The position numbers and the translations under genes are program-made. Under the pieces are notes generated by a model. The model ran no database searches. It was given only the letters and a program-made list of their open reading frames with translations, and was not told the DNA's origin. This document shows, piece after piece, positions 1 to 5,861 of a stretch of DNA of 64,000 bases. The stretch's first letter is position 1; the number at the start of each line of letters is the position of its first letter. The DNA is taken from assembly GCF_036014015.1 (NCBI RefSeq), contig NZ_CP107905.1:9982001-10046000 (forward strand), given 5' to 3'. The DNA is from Streptomyces sp. NBC_00457. GTDB lineage: Bacteria > Actinomycetota > Actinomycetes > Streptomycetales > Streptomycetaceae.

Positions 1-72
1 GACCTCGTCGCACTCCACACATCCCATGCCACTGGGCGGAACAGCAGGGTCGATCATGTTGTCGCTCGTCAT
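1..72 (-). CDS. UBP-type zinc finger protein, N-terminal fragment (cut by window edge)
   Basis: Only the first 24 codons are inside the window; the rest lies beyond position 1. The ATG at 72-70 overlaps the TGA of the histidine kinase gene (ATGA), so the gene is the third member of a coupled operon. The visible residues start MTSDNMIDPAVPPSG and reach a Cys-x-x-Cys pair (GCVEC), which is how the small actinobacterial proteins with a UBP-type (ubiquitin-hydrolase) zinc finger begin. In eukaryotes this finger binds the C-terminal tail of ubiquitin; its role in bacteria is not known. The family call comes from the short N-terminal match and the operon context, so it is moderately secure. Confidence 0.6.
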   Translation of the reverse strand, partial: MTSDNMIDPAVPPSGMGCVECDEV

Positions 73-1526
73 ACGGCCTCCTCGGGCATGTCGTTCGCGG
101 GCGCGACCAGCGGAAGCAGCACCTGGAAGCGCGTGTCGCCCGGCTCGGACTCGACCTGAAGCGTGCCGTGATGCTTGTTGACGACGATCCGCCAGGATAT
201 GTCCAGGCCGAGCCCGGTTCCCTCGCCCACCGGCTTGGTGGTGAAGAAGGGGTCGAAGATACGGCTGCGGATCTCCTTGGGCACGCCCGGCCCGGTGTCA
301 CGGAACTCCACCAGCAACCGTTCGTGCTGGAGCGCCGTCCGCACGGTCAACGTCCCTTCGCCGCCCGCGTCGTTGATCGCGTGGACCGCGTTGTCGATCA
401 GGTTGGTCCACACCTGGTTGAGCTCCGCCGGGTACGCCGGAATGTTCGGGAGCGTACGGTCGTACTCCTTGACGACCTTGATCCGCTCCCCGATCTTGCC
501 CGAGAGCATCAGCAGGGTGCTGTCGAGGAGTTCATGCACGTCGGCGACCTGATAGGGCGCCCGGTCGAGCTGCGAATACTGCTTGGCCGCGTCGACGAGG
601 TGGGAGATGCGGTTGGTGGAGTCGTTGATCTCGTCCATCAACAGCTCGGTCTCGACGGTGTAGTTGAGCCACCCGATCGCGTTCGGCAGGATCTCCTCGT
701 CCACGGCCGCCGCGATCTGGTCGAGCCAGTCGGTGTCGATGCCGGCCTGCACGAAGGTCGGCGCGATCCGCCAGCCCTCCTGGATGTCGTGGTCGTCGAG
801 CCAGTCGGTGAGGGCGTCCTCCCGGTCGGCGGCTTCCAGCGGAGTCAGCACGGGTGCCTTGGCGACGCGTTCGGCGGTGCGTTCCTGGATGTCGATGAGG
901 TTCGCCATGACCTCGGGGGAGTAGGAGCCCTGGGCGATGACGGCGAGCTTGTGCCGCATCTTGCCCACGCGCTCCCGGAGCGTCGCGGTGGCTCGTACGG
1001 CCGCCGCTGCCGGGTTGTTGAGCTCGTGGGTCAGACCCGCCGACAACGACCCGAGTGCCAGCAGCCGTTCGCGCTCCCCGATGGCCCGCTGGGTGTTCTT
1101 CGAGCCGAAGAAGAGGCCTTCGAGCAGGTGGACCGCCATGGGGAACCACTGCTGCATGAAGGCCGCGAACTCCTCGGCGGGCACCACGAAGAACCGGGTG
1201 GGTTCCGTGACCCGCATGGAGCTGTTGTAGACCTGGCGTACCCGGTCCCCGAGGTACGCCTGCATGGATCCCGCGTACACCCCGCGCTGGGAGGTGCGGG
1301 TGACCTCCACGTCGTCGACGCCGACCCGGCGGGAGAGCACCACCGTGCCCTCGATCATGACGTAGAAGCAGGTGGCGGGCTCGCCCTCGGTGTACACGGG
1401 CCCGGGCTCGAACTTCTCCACCCGCCCCGCGCGGCACAGCTGTCCGAGCTGCTCGGCGGACAGCTTCTCGAACAGGAACAGCGACCCGATCTCCGCGGGG
1501 CTGCACGGCATCGGCTGCCCGCTCAC
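69..1526 (-). CDS. Crp-domain sensor histidine kinase (ATP-binding)
   Basis: 485-aa cytosolic sensor kinase with no membrane segment. Residues about 10-130 form a cyclic-nucleotide-binding (Crp-type) domain. The H-box follows (SAGLTHELNNP, His167), then an insert of about 130 residues before the second dimerisation helix (NRISHLVDAAKQYSQLDR). The catalytic domain has an N-box (NLIDNAVHAI, Asn379), DTGPG (410-414) and GTGLGL (436-441), so kinase activity looks intact. The phosphate-cassette region of the Crp domain does not match the cAMP-binding consensus, so the ligand is unknown. The GTG at 1526 overlaps the upstream TGA (GTGA), which fixes the start; a longer in-frame extension has no domain support. 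The likely partner is the receiver domain in the preceding gene. Confidence 0.88.
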   Translation of the reverse strand: MSGQPMPCSPAEIGSLFLFEKLSAEQLGQLCRAGRVEKFEPGPVYTEGEPATCFYVMIEGTVVLSRRVGVDDVEVTRTSQRGVYAGSMQAYLGDRVRQVYNSSMRVTEPTRFFVVPAEEFAAFMQQWFPMAVHLLEGLFFGSKNTQRAIGERERLLALGSLSAGLTHELNNPAAAAVRATATLRERVGKMRHKLAVIAQGSYSPEVMANLIDIQERTAERVAKAPVLTPLEAADREDALTDWLDDHDIQEGWRIAPTFVQAGIDTDWLDQIAAAVDEEILPNAIGWLNYTVETELLMDEINDSTNRISHLVDAAKQYSQLDRAPYQVADVHELLDSTLLMLSGKIGERIKVVKEYDRTLPNIPAYPAELNQVWTNLIDNAVHAINDAGGEGTLTVRTALQHERLLVEFRDTGPGVPKEIRSRIFDPFFTTKPVGEGTGLGLDISWRIVVNKHHGTLQVESEPGDTRFQVLLPLVAPANDMPEEAV

Positions 1527-3199
1527 GACTGCTCCAGATACCGGTGGACGAGCATCACGGCCATGGCTCCCTCTCCGACGGCGGACGCGACGCGCTTGGC
1601 GGACTCGGCGCGCGCGTCGCCCGCCACGAACACGCCGGGAATGTTGGTCTCCAGGTGGTACGGCGGCCGGTCCAGCTCCCAGTCCGCAGGTGGCCGCCCG
1701 TCCGGGGTCAGATCGGGCCCGGCCAGGATGAACCCGCGCTCGTCCCGCAGCACCGTGCCGTCCAGCCAGTCGGTCAGCGGAGCGGCGCCGATGAACACGA
1801 ACATCCACTGCGCGTCGACGAGTTCGGTCTCACCGGTCTGCGTGTCGCGCAGGGTGAGCTGTTCCAGGTGGTCGGAGCCATGCGCGGACTCGACGACGGT
1901 TTGTGCGCGGACCGAAATGTTCGGTGCCTCGTCGATCTGCTGGATCAGGTAGTGCGACATCGACGCGGACAGGTCCGCCCCGCGCACCAGCAGGGTGACC
2001 GACTTGGCGCCCCGGGCCAGGTACATCGCCGCCTGCCCCGCCGAGTTGGCGCCACCGACGATGTACACGTCCTGCCCCTGGCAGGAGGCCGCCTCCGTGA
2101 GCGCCGAGCCGTAGAACACCCCGCAGCCGGTCAGGTCGTCGCAGCCCGGTGCCTCGAGCTGCCGGTACGACACGCCGGTCGCCAGGATCACACTGTGCGC
2201 GGCGATCGCCGACCCGTCCGAGAACCGTACGACCCGTGCCGCGCCGTTGATCTCCAGCCCCGTCACCTCGCGCGCGGTGAGGATCTCGGCGTCGAACCTC
2301 GCCGCCTGCCGCCGCGCCCGGTCGGTGAGCTGAGCCCCCGAGACGCCGTCCGGGAAGCCCAGGTAGTTCTCGATCCGCGAACTCTGCCCGGCCTGCCCAC
2401 CGGTCGCCGACCGCTCCACGAGCACGGTCCGCAGCCCCTCCGAGGCCCCGTACACGGCCGCACCCAGCCCGGCCGGACCGCCCCCGATCACCACGAGGTC
2501 GTAGAAGTCGGCCATCGGCGTGGTCGCCAGCCCGACACGGGCGGCGAGCTCCGGCGCGTCCGGCTCGACGAGGGGCGTGCCGTCCGCGGTGATCACCACC
2601 GGCAGCCGCTGCCCGTCCTGCCCGGCGGCCGTCAGCAGCCGCCGCCCCTCGGGTTCGTCGGCGGAGTACCAGCGGTACGGCACCTGGTTGCGGGCCAGGA
2701 ACTCCCGTACGTCCGAGGAACGCGCCGACCAGCGGTGCCCGACCACCTTGGTGCTGGGCACCGGCCGGTAGTCGCTGCACCGCCAGGCCTCCAGCAGATC
2801 GTCGAGGACGGGATACAGCTTCTCCTCCGGCGGATCCCACGGCTTGAGCAGATAGTGGTCGAGGTCGACGACGTTGATCGCGTCGATCGCCGCGTTCGTG
2901 TCCGCGTACGCGGTCAGCAGCACCCGCCGTGCGCCCGGGTAGACGTCCAGCGCCTGCTCCAGGAACTCGATGCCGTTCATCTGCGGCATCCGGTAGTCGG
3001 CCAGGAGCACGGCCACCAGATCGCCGCGCAGCTTCAGCTCACGCAGCGCGTCCAGTGCGGACTCGCCGGACTCCGCGCGCACGATCCGGTACGACCCGCC
3101 GTAGCGGCGCCGCAGGTCGCGGGCGACGGCACGGGAGACTCCCGGGTCGTCGTCCACGGTCATGATGACGGTCCGCGCTGCGTCGGCGGCCTGTGCCAT
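1523..3199 (-). CDS. Receiver domain fused to thioredoxin-reductase-like FAD oxidoreductase
   Basis: 558-aa fusion. Residues 10-125 are a complete response-regulator receiver: acidic patch VDDDP, phospho-acceptor Asp68 (LLADYRMP), Thr96 and Lys119 (LLKPW). Residues about 150-230 look like a glutaredoxin/thioredoxin-fold domain with no cysteine pair. From about 240 on is a class-II thioredoxin-reductase-like flavoprotein: FAD motif GGGPAGLGAAVYGASEG, GGQAG, NAD(P)H motif VGGANSAGQAA and C-terminal GVFVAGDARAES. The place where thioredoxin reductases carry C-A-T-C reads FYGSALTEAASC, so the redox dithiol is missing. There is no DNA-binding output domain, so phosphorylation presumably controls the flavoprotein. 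The ATG at 3199 follows a GGGAG site. First gene of the operon; coupled to the Crp-domain kinase. Confidence 0.9.
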   Translation of the reverse strand: MAQAADAARTVIMTVDDDPGVSRAVARDLRRRYGGSYRIVRAESGESALDALRELKLRGDLVAVLLADYRMPQMNGIEFLEQALDVYPGARRVLLTAYADTNAAIDAINVVDLDHYLLKPWDPPEEKLYPVLDDLLEAWRCSDYRPVPSTKVVGHRWSARSSDVREFLARNQVPYRWYSADEPEGRRLLTAAGQDGQRLPVVITADGTPLVEPDAPELAARVGLATTPMADFYDLVVIGGGPAGLGAAVYGASEGLRTVLVERSATGGQAGQSSRIENYLGFPDGVSGAQLTDRARRQAARFDAEILTAREVTGLEINGAARVVRFSDGSAIAAHSVILATGVSYRQLEAPGCDDLTGCGVFYGSALTEAASCQGQDVYIVGGANSAGQAAMYLARGAKSVTLLVRGADLSASMSHYLIQQIDEAPNISVRAQTVVESAHGSDHLEQLTLRDTQTGETELVDAQWMFVFIGAAPLTDWLDGTVLRDERGFILAGPDLTPDGRPPADWELDRPPYHLETNIPGVFVAGDARAESAKRVASAVGEGAMAVMLVHRYLEQS

Positions 3200-3322: not shown

Positions 3323-3679
3323 TCAGCGGCGCCGCGAGCTCAGCACGCAGAACTCGTTGCCCTCCGGGTCGGCAAGCGTCACCCAGCTCTCCGCGCCCGT
3401 CTGGCCGACGTCCGCGTGCCGTGCGCCGAGCGCGAGGAAGCGGGCGACCTCGGCCTCCTGGTCGTCGGGACGGAAGTCGAGGTGCAGCCGGTTCTTGACC
3501 GTCTTGCCCTCGGGGACGGGCGCGAAGATCAGCCCCGGCAGCCGGTCCTTGCGCGGCCGGATCTCGAACTCCTCGGGCGAATCGTTGATCACCACCCACC
3601 CCAGCGCCTCGGCCCACCAGCGGCCCAGGGCGACCGCGTCGGCCGCGTCCACGTTGACTTGCTCCCATTCGAGGCCCAT
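3323..3679 (-). CDS. VOC (glyoxalase-like) family protein
   Basis: 118-aa single VOC-fold protein. It has the two beta-alpha-beta modules typical of one glyoxalase/bleomycin-resistance unit: an N-terminal half with RWWAEALGW and EFEIRPR, and a C-terminal half with LHLDFRPDDQ and WVTLADPEGNEFCVL, the last being the diagnostic end of the second module. Members bind a divalent metal or sequester small molecules; the substrate cannot be told from sequence. It stands alone, divergent from the universal stress gene. Confidence 0.82.
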   Translation of the reverse strand: MGLEWEQVNVDAADAVALGRWWAEALGWVVINDSPEEFEIRPRKDRLPGLIFAPVPEGKTVKNRLHLDFRPDDQEAEVARFLALGARHADVGQTGAESWVTLADPEGNEFCVLSSRRR

Positions 3680-3754
3680 CCCGGCAGCGTAGTGAAGACT
3701 GTTCCGACGAAGCGACCGCGATGACCAAGCGACGCACTACAGGGAGGCAACCGC

Positions 3755-4627
3755 ATGACACGCCCGATCACGGCAGGGGTCGACGGGACCGAGGAGAGCC
3801 ACGCCGCGCTGGCCTGGGCGGCCCGCGAGGCGGTCCGTCGCGGACTGCCGCTCCGGGTGGTGCACGCCTGGCGGTTCCAGCCGCACGAGGCGATCGACGC
3901 CGGGGACGCCGACAGCCAGGCCGGGTGGGTGCGCGAGGCCGCGGCGGCCGCCGCCCGGACCGTCACCGAGCGGCACCCGGAGCTCGACGTGACGACGGAC
4001 GTGCTCGAAGGCGGCCCGGTCGACACCCTGGCCGCCGCGGCGGCCGACGCCGAGATGCTGGTGCTCGGCTCGCGCGGCCACGGCCGGGTCGTCGGCTTTC
4101 TGCTCGGCTCGGTCGGACAGCAGGTCATCGTCGGGGCCACGGGTCCCGTCGTCCTCGTACGAGCGGGGGACGAGCCGGCCGCCGAGGCCGCGGGCCGTGA
4201 GGTCGTCGTGGGACAGCTGGGCGACCCGGACGACAGTGCGGCCGCACTGCGGTTCGCGTTCGAGACGGCCGCCGCGCGCGGGGCGAGGGTCCGTGCCGTA
4301 CGGGCCTGGACGCTGCCGACGGTGTTCTCCTACAGCCCGGGCTCGCTGAAGCTGCTCGACGAGGCCGGGGGCCTGGAGCCGTACGAGAAGAAGGCGCTGG
4401 CCGCGGCGGTGCAGCCGTGGCGGGACCGCTTCCCGGACGTCCCGGTGGTGGAGCACGTGGAGATGGGCAGCGCGGGGCAGGTGCTGCTGGCGGTGGCGGG
4501 GCAGGCCCAGCTGATGGTGGTAGGCCGCCGGGCCCGCCGTACGGCCGTCGGCGCACGGATCGGCTCGGTCGCCCACGGGGTCCTGCATCACGCGGGCTGC
4601 CCGGTGGCCGTGGTGCCGCCCGCCTGA
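3755..4627 (+). CDS. Universal stress protein, tandem UspA domains
   Basis: 290-aa cytosolic protein with two UspA domains in tandem (about 1-145 and 150-290). Domain 1 opens with ITAGVDGTEESHAALAWAA and ends with the nucleotide-binding loop GSRGHGRVVGFLLGSV, matching G-2x-G-9x-G(S/T). Domain 2 starts VVVGQLGDPDDSAAALRFA and ends VGRRARRTAVGARIGSVAHGV, a less canonical loop. Tandem Usp proteins of this length are common in actinobacteria and act in dormancy, hypoxia and stress responses by binding ATP. The start ATG at 3755 follows an AGGGAGG site. Convergent with the DUF4032 gene one base downstream. Confidence 0.9.
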   Translation: MTRPITAGVDGTEESHAALAWAAREAVRRGLPLRVVHAWRFQPHEAIDAGDADSQAGWVREAAAAAARTVTERHPELDVTTDVLEGGPVDTLAAAAADAEMLVLGSRGHGRVVGFLLGSVGQQVIVGATGPVVLVRAGDEPAAEAAGREVVVGQLGDPDDSAAALRFAFETAAARGARVRAVRAWTLPTVFSYSPGSLKLLDEAGGLEPYEKKALAAAVQPWRDRFPDVPVVEHVEMGSAGQVLLAVAGQAQLMVVGRRARRTAVGARIGSVAHGVLHHAGCPVAVVPPA

Positions 4628-4628
4628 G

Positions 4629-5861
4629 TCACTCGGCTGTCGGCTGCAGTGTCTCGCGCGCCTTGGGCAGGATGTTCTTGACGTAGTCGTCCACCGCCGT
4701 GTCCAGCCCGATGTCGTGCTGGGCACGCTCGGACATGTACCAGCGGTGTTCGAGCAGCTGGTGGTAGATCTCGGCCGCGTCCATCGAGCCGCGCAGCTCC
4801 AGCGGCACCGCACGCACGGTGGGACGGAACACGTCCCGCACCCAGCGGTGGGCGAGCACTTCCGGGCGGGCGCCGAGGGGGTCGCCCGGGGCGTAGTCGT
4901 CCTGGGTGGCCATCCAGCTCTCCAGGTCGTTCAGGAGCCGCCGCGCCTGGTTCTCCTCGGTGTCGAGGCCGGTCAGCCGGAGCAGCTGGCGCTGGTGGTG
5001 GCCCGCGTCGACGACCTTGGGGACGAAGGTGACCGTGTCGCCGTGGGAGTTGTGCTCGATCTGCATCTCGGCCACGTCGAAACCGAGTTCGTTCAGGCGG
5101 CGTATGCGGCGCTCTATGTAGTGGTACTTGCCCGCCGGGTAGACGGAGGTGCGGGTCAGCTCGCCCCACAGGTCCCGGTAGCGTCCGCAGATCTCGGTGC
5201 CGAACTCGATCGGGTCGACGGACGGGTGCAGCGCCCCCGACGCCTCCAGGTCGAGCAGTTCGCCGCTGATGTTGACCCGGGCGAGGTCGAGGTCGTAGTC
5301 GCGCTGTCCGTCGCTGAGCTGCGGATGCAGGTCACCGGTCTCGGCGTCCACGAGATACGCGGCATAGGCGCCCGCGTCCCGCCGGAAAAGCGTGTTGGAC
5401 AGCGAGCAGTCGCCCCAGGCGAACCCGGCGAGGTGCAGCCGCACGAGCAGCACGGCCAGGGCGTCCATGAGGCGGTGCATGGTGGCCGGGCGCATCGTCG
5501 TCTCGAACATCGAGCGGTACGGCATCGAGCCGCCGAGATGCCGGGTGATGAGCACCGGTTCCAGCGGCGCCCCGTCCTTGTCGGCGCGCCCGGTGACCAC
5601 GGCGAGGGGGTCGACCGCGGGGATGCCGATCCGGTCCAGGTCGCGCAGCAGCTCGTACTCGCGCAGCGCGGGCCGTTCGGCCAGCTCCTTGACGGCGATG
5701 ACCTCGGAGCCGGCCCGGGCGTAGCGCACCACGTGGCGGGAGATGCCGCGCGGCAGCGGGACGAGGTACTCCTCGGGCCACTCCTCCAGCGGCACGTCCC
5801 ACGGCAGCTCGAGGAGGAGCGCGGGGTGCTCCGGGTTGGTCGCGCTGATCTGCAATGCCAT
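4629..5861 (-). CDS. DUF4032 kinase-like protein
   Basis: 410-aa soluble protein of the DUF4032 family, which has a protein-kinase-like (lipopolysaccharide-kinase/InaA-like) N-terminal fold. Kinase landmarks are visible: a VIAVKEL lysine (Lys58), a helix-C glutamate (REYELL, Glu68 or Glu70), a catalytic-loop-like WGDCSLSN (Asp151, Asn156) and a DFG-equivalent VDAE (Asp172). The C-terminal 180 residues, including the RRLNELGFDV and EIYHQLLEHRWYMSE stretches, are the family-specific part. The substrate is unknown. The start at 5861 is where the conserved sequence begins (MALQISATNPEHPALL); a strong ribosome binding site is not obvious. Adjacent to an MBL-fold gene on the same strand. Confidence 0.82.
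   Translation of the reverse strand: MALQISATNPEHPALLLELPWDVPLEEWPEEYLVPLPRGISRHVVRYARAGSEVIAVKELAERPALREYELLRDLDRIGIPAVDPLAVVTGRADKDGAPLEPVLITRHLGGSMPYRSMFETTMRPATMHRLMDALAVLLVRLHLAGFAWGDCSLSNTLFRRDAGAYAAYLVDAETGDLHPQLSDGQRDYDLDLARVNISGELLDLEASGALHPSVDPIEFGTEICGRYRDLWGELTRTSVYPAGKYHYIERRIRRLNELGFDVAEMQIEHNSHGDTVTFVPKVVDAGHHQRQLLRLTGLDTEENQARRLLNDLESWMATQDDYAPGDPLGARPEVLAHRWVRDVFRPTVRAVPLELRGSMDAAEIYHQLLEHRWYMSERAQHDIGLDTAVDDYVKNILPKARETLQPTAE

What the first reader, a model, noticed from the sequence alone, without database searches (positions are those of the whole stretch)
1..3199. Coupled operon of a receiver-flavoprotein, a Crp-domain kinase and a UBP zinc finger
Three genes joined by 4-base overlaps encode a sensor kinase with a nucleotide-type ligand domain, a response regulator whose output is a thioredoxin-reductase-like flavoprotein instead of a DNA-binding domain, and a small protein with a ubiquitin-hydrolase-type zinc finger. 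A phosphorelay controlling a redox enzyme, with a zinc finger that in eukaryotes reads ubiquitin tails, is a poorly described signalling system.
Basis: partly seen in the sequence, partly recalled or inferred. Interest (0 to 1): 0.72.

Follow-up and report, generated by a model that had tools for sequence, protein, structure and literature searches.

The report
Kinase-controlled flavoprotein without redox cysteines
A Streptomyces operon pairs a sensor kinase with a receiver-tagged flavoprotein that looks like a thioredoxin reductase but lacks the cysteines that define one, plus a small zinc-finger protein; relatives of this trio occur in several bacterial phyla and what it does is untested.

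Summary
In detail: on the minus strand, receiver-flavoprotein, Crp-domain kinase and UBP zinc finger are joined by GTGA and ATGA overlaps. Only 24 codons of the finger gene lie in the window; the genome holds the rest. The linkage is real. In the genus, 37 flavoprotein places (32 of 61 genomes) have the kinase within 2.5 kb in 32 and the finger in 35. Of 80 named loci from many phyla, 65 have the kinase and 21 the finger within 3 kb.

The reading needs correcting. The flavoprotein should not be a thioredoxin reductase: the CxxC is absent in 81 of 81 of this subfamily, replaced by a conserved YGAAxTEA-type loop. A glutaredoxin-like domain lies between receiver and flavoprotein, its cysteines mostly serines. 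The finger lacks the Arg motif by which USP5 binds ubiquitin tails.

Best reading: kinase phosphorylation of Asp68 controls a cysteine-independent NAD(P)H flavoprotein; the finger is a partner of that flavoprotein. The REC-TrxR fusion was already noted; I found neither the cysteine loss nor the trio in the open papers searched.

The parts
1523..3199 (-). Receiver - glutaredoxin-like - TrxR-like flavoprotein, 558 aa (stop included)
   Evidence: ORF; Pfam Response_reg 12-124 and Pyr_redox_2 233-544; model pLDDT 88.3, pTM 0.72
2828..3166 (-). Receiver domain, residues 12-124
   Evidence: Pfam PF00072, 51.8 bits vs cut-off 30.2
2996..2998 (-). Codon of Asp68, predicted phospho-acceptor
   Evidence: Alignment position; kept in 13 of 13 kinase-coupled actinobacterial relatives
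2531..2755 (-). Glutaredoxin-like domain, residues about 149-223, active-site cysteines replaced (W-S-A-R-S)
   Evidence: Aligned with WCPDC glutaredoxin domains of L068-L071; the latter hit Pfam Glutaredoxin; the model shows a beta-alpha-beta-alpha-beta-beta-alpha order. No direct Pfam glutaredoxin or credible PDB hit for the window's own domain
1532..2503 (-). TrxR-like FAD/NAD(P)H domain, residues 233-556
   Evidence: Pfam PF07992; PDB thioredoxin reductases by sequence and fold
2090..2116 (-). Residues 362-370, FYGSALTEA, in place of the TrxR CxxC
   Evidence: Alignments; Tyr363, Gly364 and Glu369 in 81 of 81, Cys at 363-368 in 0 of 81
69..1526 (-). Sensor kinase, 485 aa, GTG start, no clear membrane segment
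   Evidence: ORF; Pfam; GTGA overlap; highest 19-residue hydropathy 1.04
1149..1397 (-). Crp-like (cNMP_binding) domain of the kinase, residues 44-126
   Evidence: Pfam PF00027, 32.7 bits vs cut-off 27.5
1026..1028 (-). Codon of His167 in HELNNP, predicted phospho-donor
   Evidence: His in 64 of 64 aligned kinases
108..428 (-). HATPase_c domain of the kinase, residues 367-473
   Evidence: Pfam PF02518
1..72 (-). First 24 codons of the UBP zinc-finger gene; the rest lies outside the window (L003:5719-6072, 117 aa)
   Evidence: ATGA overlap with the kinase

Best explanation
A soluble two-component module whose output is a flavoprotein, not transcription. The kinase takes an input through its Crp-like domain and phosphorylates Asp68 of the receiver. 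The phosphate alters the attached NAD(P)H/FAD flavoprotein. That flavoprotein descends from a glutaredoxin-thioredoxin reductase fusion but has lost both thiol sites, so it is not a thioredoxin reductase; it would pass electrons from NAD(P)H and FAD to a non-disulfide acceptor, using a rebuilt YGAAxTEA loop at the site of the old CxxC. The UBP finger is a protein-binding partner mainly of the flavoprotein. Shown by sequence: domain make-up, intact phosphotransfer residues, cysteine loss, conserved linkage. Inferred: phosphotransfer, cofactor binding, electron acceptor, role of the finger.
For: Kinase linkage: 32 of 37 places in the genus, 65 of 80 loci across phyla. Receiver Asp68, Thr96 and Lys119 all kept in 13 of 13 kinase-coupled actinobacterial relatives but in 1 of 15 relatives with no such kinase nearby. 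Kinase His in 64 of 64. CxxC cysteines 0 of 81, Glu369 81 of 81; glutaredoxin-site Ser158 76 of 81. FAD and dinucleotide motifs (GGGPAG, GGxNSAGQ, GD) conserved. Relatives with both CxxC sites intact exist and root the tree outside this group. Finger stays with the flavoprotein without the kinase: 5 of 5 Streptomyces paralogues, two of the cNMP-fused forms (L065, L066) and L057. Finger fused to the kinase in L045.
Against: No activity, cofactor or phosphotransfer was measured. The 15 receivers without kinase form one clade as far as they are in the tree (14 of them; SH-aLRT 98), so the correlation may be one event; L051, left out, keeps Asp68, Thr96 and Lys119 without a kinase on its contig. 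Kinase-free paralogues with intact receivers (5 of 5) need a kinase elsewhere. A lone Cys373 occurs in 59 of 81 including the window, so single-thiol chemistry is not excluded. The 81 were the closest 80 of 580 relatives plus the window, so cysteine loss is partly a property of the sample. The finger is absent within 3 kb in 59 of 80 loci.
Confidence: 0.58

Rival explanations
1. The flavoprotein is not a turnover enzyme but a redox or NAD(P)H sensor: bound FAD/NAD(P)H state feeds into the receiver and tunes the kinase or a partner such as the zinc finger.
For: Both catalytic thiol sites are lost while nucleotide-binding motifs stay. No DNA-binding or other output gene recurs beside the pair: in 80 loci the commonest other family occurs in 11, a PAS-type sensor by its look. 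The cNMP-TrxR* form carries the sensory domain directly on the flavoprotein.
Against: A strictly conserved Tyr-Gly...Glu loop at the catalytic place suggests chemistry rather than decay. The usual direction is kinase to receiver to output.
Confidence: 0.27
2. It is a true thioredoxin reductase under phosphorelay control, as the database names say.
For: NCBI names such as 'fused response regulator/thioredoxin-disulfide reductase'; TIGR01292 is the best NCBIfam match; Foldseek places it with TrxR and AhpF. A Crp-TrxR fusion has been reported as a thioredoxin reductase (PMC6544261, passages).
Against: CxxC absent in 81 of 81 and glutaredoxin-site cysteine at either position in only 5 of 81; 218.1 bits against a 343.45 cut-off.
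Confidence: 0.05
3. The UBP finger reads a ubiquitin-like C-terminal tail (Pup or a MoaD/ThiS type protein) and couples protein tagging to this pathway.
For: The counterparts of USP5 Trp209 and Tyr261 are kept as Trp28 and Tyr76.
Against: The Arg-Arg-Tyr motif needed for ubiquitin binding in USP5 (PMC3247260, passages) is His-Ile/Val-Gly here; among 29 other actinobacterial fingers Arg stands at the first place in 2 and the full motif in 0 (read by eye). The finger also travels in Bacteroidota, which to my knowledge (recalled) lack Pup.
Confidence: 0.07
4. The genes are neighbours by chance or by shared ancestry of a genome region only.
For: The finger is missing near 59 of 80 flavoprotein genes.
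Against: 8 observed against about 0.11 expected adjacencies; gene order changes while the set is kept (orders RR-HK-UBP, HK-RR-UBP, UBP-HK-RR, UBP-RR); fusion of kinase and finger in L045.
Confidence: 0.02

Closest known systems
REC-thioredoxin reductase fusions ('Mycobacterium-like combination', PMC5847659; NCBI 'fused response regulator/thioredoxin-disulfide reductase')
   Same: Same domain order at the level of REC plus TrxR-like domain; the window protein belongs to this named architecture.
   Different: In the passages seen neither the loss of CxxC, the glutaredoxin-like middle domain, the partner kinase nor the UBP finger is mentioned.
Low-molecular-weight thioredoxin reductase (TIGR01292; PDB 7jyp, 5mh4)
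   Same: FAD and NAD(P)H folds; Foldseek against 5mh4 (titled FR conformation) TMt 0.94, rmsd 2.4.
   Different: No redox-active disulfide; extra receiver and glutaredoxin-like domains.
AhpF (PDB 4xvg, 4o5q, 1hyu)
   Same: Thioredoxin-fold domain ahead of a TrxR-like domain; best Foldseek E-value (6.0e-35).
   Different: AhpF works through disulfides (recalled); here the cysteines are gone. Whole-length superposition is poor (TMq 0.37).
Crp-TrxR fusion ATII-TrxR (PMC6544261)
   Same: Crp-like domain tied to a TrxR-like domain, as in L062, L065, L066.
   Different: In the window the Crp-like domain sits on the kinase, and the link would be phosphotransfer.
Bacterial zf-UBP protein of known structure, PDB 2ida
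   Same: Closest solved structure of the finger, 7.7e-27; shares the GCCD(S/D)SP loop.
   Different: Named only 'Hypothetical protein' in the PDB list; no function attached.

Membership tests
Two-component response regulator | Receiver with Asp pair, phospho-acceptor Asp, Thr/Ser and Lys | tested here: met
   Asp16, Asp17, Asp68, Thr96, Lys119 present; Pfam over cut-off
Two-component response regulator | Phosphorylated by its kinase | not testable with these tools
   Needs a phosphotransfer assay
Histidine kinase | H-box His and HATPase_c | tested here: met
   HELNNP, His in 64 of 64 relatives; HATPase_c 84.6 bits vs 26.4; HisKA itself sub-threshold
Cyclic-nucleotide-binding domain | Pfam cNMP_binding over cut-off | tested here: met
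   32.7 vs 27.5 bits
Cyclic-nucleotide-binding domain | Phosphate-binding cassette GE...PRxA (motif recalled) | tested here: not met
   Window reads GSMQAYLGDRVRQVYNSSM; relatives such as L102, L104, L106 and L141 do carry GE...(P/A)RxA
Thioredoxin reductase (TIGR01292) | Score over curated cut-off | tested here: not met
   218.1 vs 343.45 bits
Thioredoxin reductase (TIGR01292) | Redox-active CxxC | tested here: not met
   No Cys at residues 363-368 in 81 of 81
Thioredoxin reductase (TIGR01292) | FAD and NAD(P)H binding folds | tested here: met
   Pfam Pyr_redox_2 and motifs; binding itself not measured
Glutaredoxin | CxxC or CxxS active site | tested here: not met
   Window W-S-A-R-S; Cys at either position in 5 of 81
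ZnF-UBP | Pfam zf-UBP over cut-off, zinc ligands | tested here: met
   54.3 vs 22.7 bits; Cys/His positions invariant in A3
ZnF-UBP as ubiquitin-tail reader | USP5 Arg221 (RRY motif) | tested here: not met
   His39-Ile40-Gly41 by the ungapped spacing from Cys37 to His50; PMC3247260 passages
ZnF-UBP as ubiquitin-tail reader | USP5 Trp209 and Tyr261 | tested here: met
   Trp28 and Tyr76 by alignment

The most novel reading that the evidence does not exclude
A widespread class of response regulators whose output is a cysteine-free flavoenzyme: evolution took a glutaredoxin-thioredoxin reductase fusion, removed both thiol centres, built a new YGAAxTEA active site, put it under histidine-kinase control (or, in sister lines, directly under a Crp-type domain), and added a zinc finger of the ubiquitin-reader fold that binds this flavoprotein, perhaps its free C-terminus, which ends 3 residues after the HxYL motif in 17 of 21 finger-linked and 34 of 59 other loci.
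Probability: 0.38. Interest if true: 0.72.

Novelty: new variant of a known kind. Interest (0 to 1): 0.55.

Why it matters
If right, a protein that databases call thioredoxin reductase in many bacteria is something else, and two-component signalling would have a direct metabolic or redox output that acts without transcription. It would also give the bacterial UBP fingers, which lack the eukaryotic ubiquitin-binding motif, a first concrete partner to test.

Tried and rejected
Thioredoxin reductase by name: rejected on the missing CxxC. Ubiquitin-tail reader: rejected for the USP5 mode. Another conserved partner gene: none; the commonest other family in 80 loci occurs in 11. Structure model of the finger: poor (mean pLDDT 61.6), not used. 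Direct PDB match of the glutaredoxin-like domain: none credible (best E 0.23); its identity rests on the alignment with relatives. C-terminal tail idea: counts only suggestive.

Rows dropped and limits: one search left out L040 (cut before Asp68) and L051 (N-terminus cut); L051 was added and goes against the pattern. In one search I pasted 37 of 37 flavoprotein, 32 of 32 kinase and 41 of 98 finger places; the two flavoprotein places without a finger (main operon of G168, and G143) have none nearby among all 98 either. The 35 finger-linked places include a decayed operon (G126), a finger split over two frames (G023) and one on the other strand (G159). Loci are the best 80 of 580, found with two patterns, one of which contains the receiver Asp, so the count of Asp68 there (80 of 81) is biased; Thr96 and Lys119 (81 of 81 each) are not in the patterns. 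Some contigs are short, so neighbour counts are lower bounds. The tree is a quick one with SH-aLRT only and places long rows unsurely.

Papers: only the listed searches were made, in the open PMC library; passages, not whole texts, were seen of PMC5847659, PMC6544261, PMC9953108, PMC3247260 and PMC12632262.
Full report
What is there. The window is G000:C1:9982001-10046000 of a 10.8 Mb single-contig genome; the nearest named homologues are Streptomyces, 94% identical. Reading along the minus strand: a 558 aa receiver-flavoprotein (3199-1523), a 485 aa kinase (1526-69) and a 117 aa zinc-finger protein that begins at 72 and continues outside the window. The two junctions are GTGA and ATGA. Pfam gives receiver plus Pyr_redox_2, cNMP_binding plus HATPase_c, and zf-UBP.

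Is the grouping real? In 61 genomes of the genus, 37 relatives of the flavoprotein lie in 32 genomes; the kinase is within 2.5 kb of 32 and the finger of 35. The 35 include a decayed operon (G126), a finger split over two frames (G023) and one on the other strand (G159). The five relatives without the kinase are 54-55% identical paralogues; each has the finger at its 5' side and an intact receiver site, and no such kinase in the fetched 9-10.5 kb. In 119 genomes spread over the phylum, zf-UBP occurs in 25 genomes at 33 places, 8 of them within 5 kb of a flavoprotein relative, against about 0.11 expected. In 80 named loci (Actinomycetes, Chloroflexi, Cyanobacteria, Bacteroidetes, Acidobacteria, Gemmatimonadetes, Proteobacteria and others by record title), the kinase is within 3 kb in 65, the finger in 21, both in 18; some contigs are short. 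Gene order varies: RR-HK-UBP in L108, HK-RR-UBP in L136-L138, UBP-HK-RR in L163 and L176, UBP-RR in L157. On a quick tree of 116 rows the finger label needs at least 20 changes. In L045 the kinase and a finger are one open frame. No other family recurs beside the genes in more than 11 of 80 loci.

The flavoprotein is not what its name says. Aligned to solved thioredoxin reductases it lacks the CxxC. In 81 sequences (the 80 loci and the window) none has a Cys at residues 363-368, while Tyr363, Gly364 and Glu369 are in 81 of 81; Thr368 is in 66. Between receiver and flavoprotein lies a domain that aligns with the WCPDC glutaredoxin domain of L068-L071, which Pfam recognises in L068 and L070; here the site reads Ser158-x-x-Ser161, Ser158 in 76 of 81, Cys at either position in 5. 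The intact fusions with WCPDC/WCPEC and CATC/CASC fall outside the group on the tree, where they were used as outgroup. The model (pLDDT 88.3) has its best E-values with AhpF and thioredoxin reductases; 5mh4, titled FR conformation, gives TMt 0.94 while 5mjk, titled FO conformation, gives 0.63. A caution: Cys373 stands in 59 of 81, the window included, and the 80 loci were the best of 580.

Kinase and receiver. Receiver Asp68, Thr96 and Lys119 are together in 13 of 13 kinase-coupled actinobacterial relatives and in 1 of 15 without such a kinase nearby; Asp68 alone in 13 of 13 and 4 of 15 (one search had 3 of 14, without L051). L040 could not be counted. Fourteen of the 15 form one clade, so this may be one evolutionary event, but it is the pattern expected if the kinase phosphorylates the receiver. 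The H-box His is in 64 of 64 aligned kinases. The Crp-like domain of this kinase lacks the phosphate-binding cassette (motif recalled) that relatives such as L102, L104, L106 and L141 show, so cAMP is not a safe guess for its ligand. Sister proteins L062, L065 and L066 carry a Crp-like domain directly on the same glutaredoxin-like/TrxR-like core, which suggests that the core is a portable output for this kind of input.

The finger. Profile search finds PDB 2ida, a bacterial protein without assigned function, then USP5, HDAC6 and other USPs. Counting from Cys37 to His50 without gaps puts His39-Ile40-Gly41 at USP5 Arg221-Arg222-Tyr223; Trp28 and Tyr76 fall on Trp209 and Tyr261. In USP5, R221K raises KD from 2.3 to about 100 micromolar and exchange of the three residues abolishes binding; USP33's finger does not bind ubiquitin at all (PMC3247260, passages). 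So reading of ubiquitin tails in the USP5 manner is unlikely. The finger follows the flavoprotein with or without the kinase (5 of 5 paralogues; L057, L065, L066), so I take the flavoprotein as its partner.

Mechanism and novelty. Most likely, phosphorylation of Asp68 controls NAD(P)H-flavin chemistry with a non-disulfide acceptor, and the finger binds the flavoprotein. A pure redox-sensor role is the main rival. The REC-TrxR combination is noted in a census (PMC5847659, passages), counted once in a table of thermophilic cyanobacteria (PMC9953108, passage) and named by NCBI. Searches for the trio, the bacterial finger or a cysteine-free form gave nothing on them, in open papers only. I file it as a new variant of a known kind.

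Noticed in passing
L075:1-1695 (G082), L091:1-1695 (G008): zf-UBP is fused to the C-terminal end of a Na_H_Exchanger protein in both, so bacterial UBP fingers have at least one other kind of partner.
   Followed up: partly
L004:5216-5602 and 3688-5460: The second zf-UBP of the same genome stands at the divergent start of a Na+/H+ antiporter gene.
   Followed up: partly
window 3755-4624 (+): A universal stress protein gene is divergent to the operon; it is found beside 13 of 29 genus loci checked (L035 and L182-L209, mostly with 1.5 kb flanks).
   Followed up: partly
window 3326-3679 (-): A glyoxalase-like gene lies just upstream of the flavoprotein, same strand; seen in 6 of the same 29 loci.
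   Followed up: partly
L003:2655-5594 (-): A 980 aa AAA/LuxR-type regulator lies 124 bases downstream of the finger gene; also present in G023 (L035).
   Followed up: partly
L048, L049, L052, L053, L056-L061, L063: A clade of receiver-flavoproteins without a linked kinase whose receivers have mostly lost Asp68, Thr96 or Lys119: pseudo-receivers on the same output.
   Followed up: partly
L068-L072: Glutaredoxin-thioredoxin reductase fusions with WCPDC or WCPEC, and CATC or CASC where the TrxR part is complete (L072 is cut short).
   Followed up: no
window 72-1526, residues about 187-305 of the kinase: HisKA matches only its first half (positions 2-30 of 66), and the next conserved helix-like stretch (RIS.LV...K.Y..D) comes about 120 residues later: a long insert in the dimerisation region.
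   Followed up: no
L035:7903-8515: The finger gene of G023 is split over two reading frames; described only.
   Followed up: no
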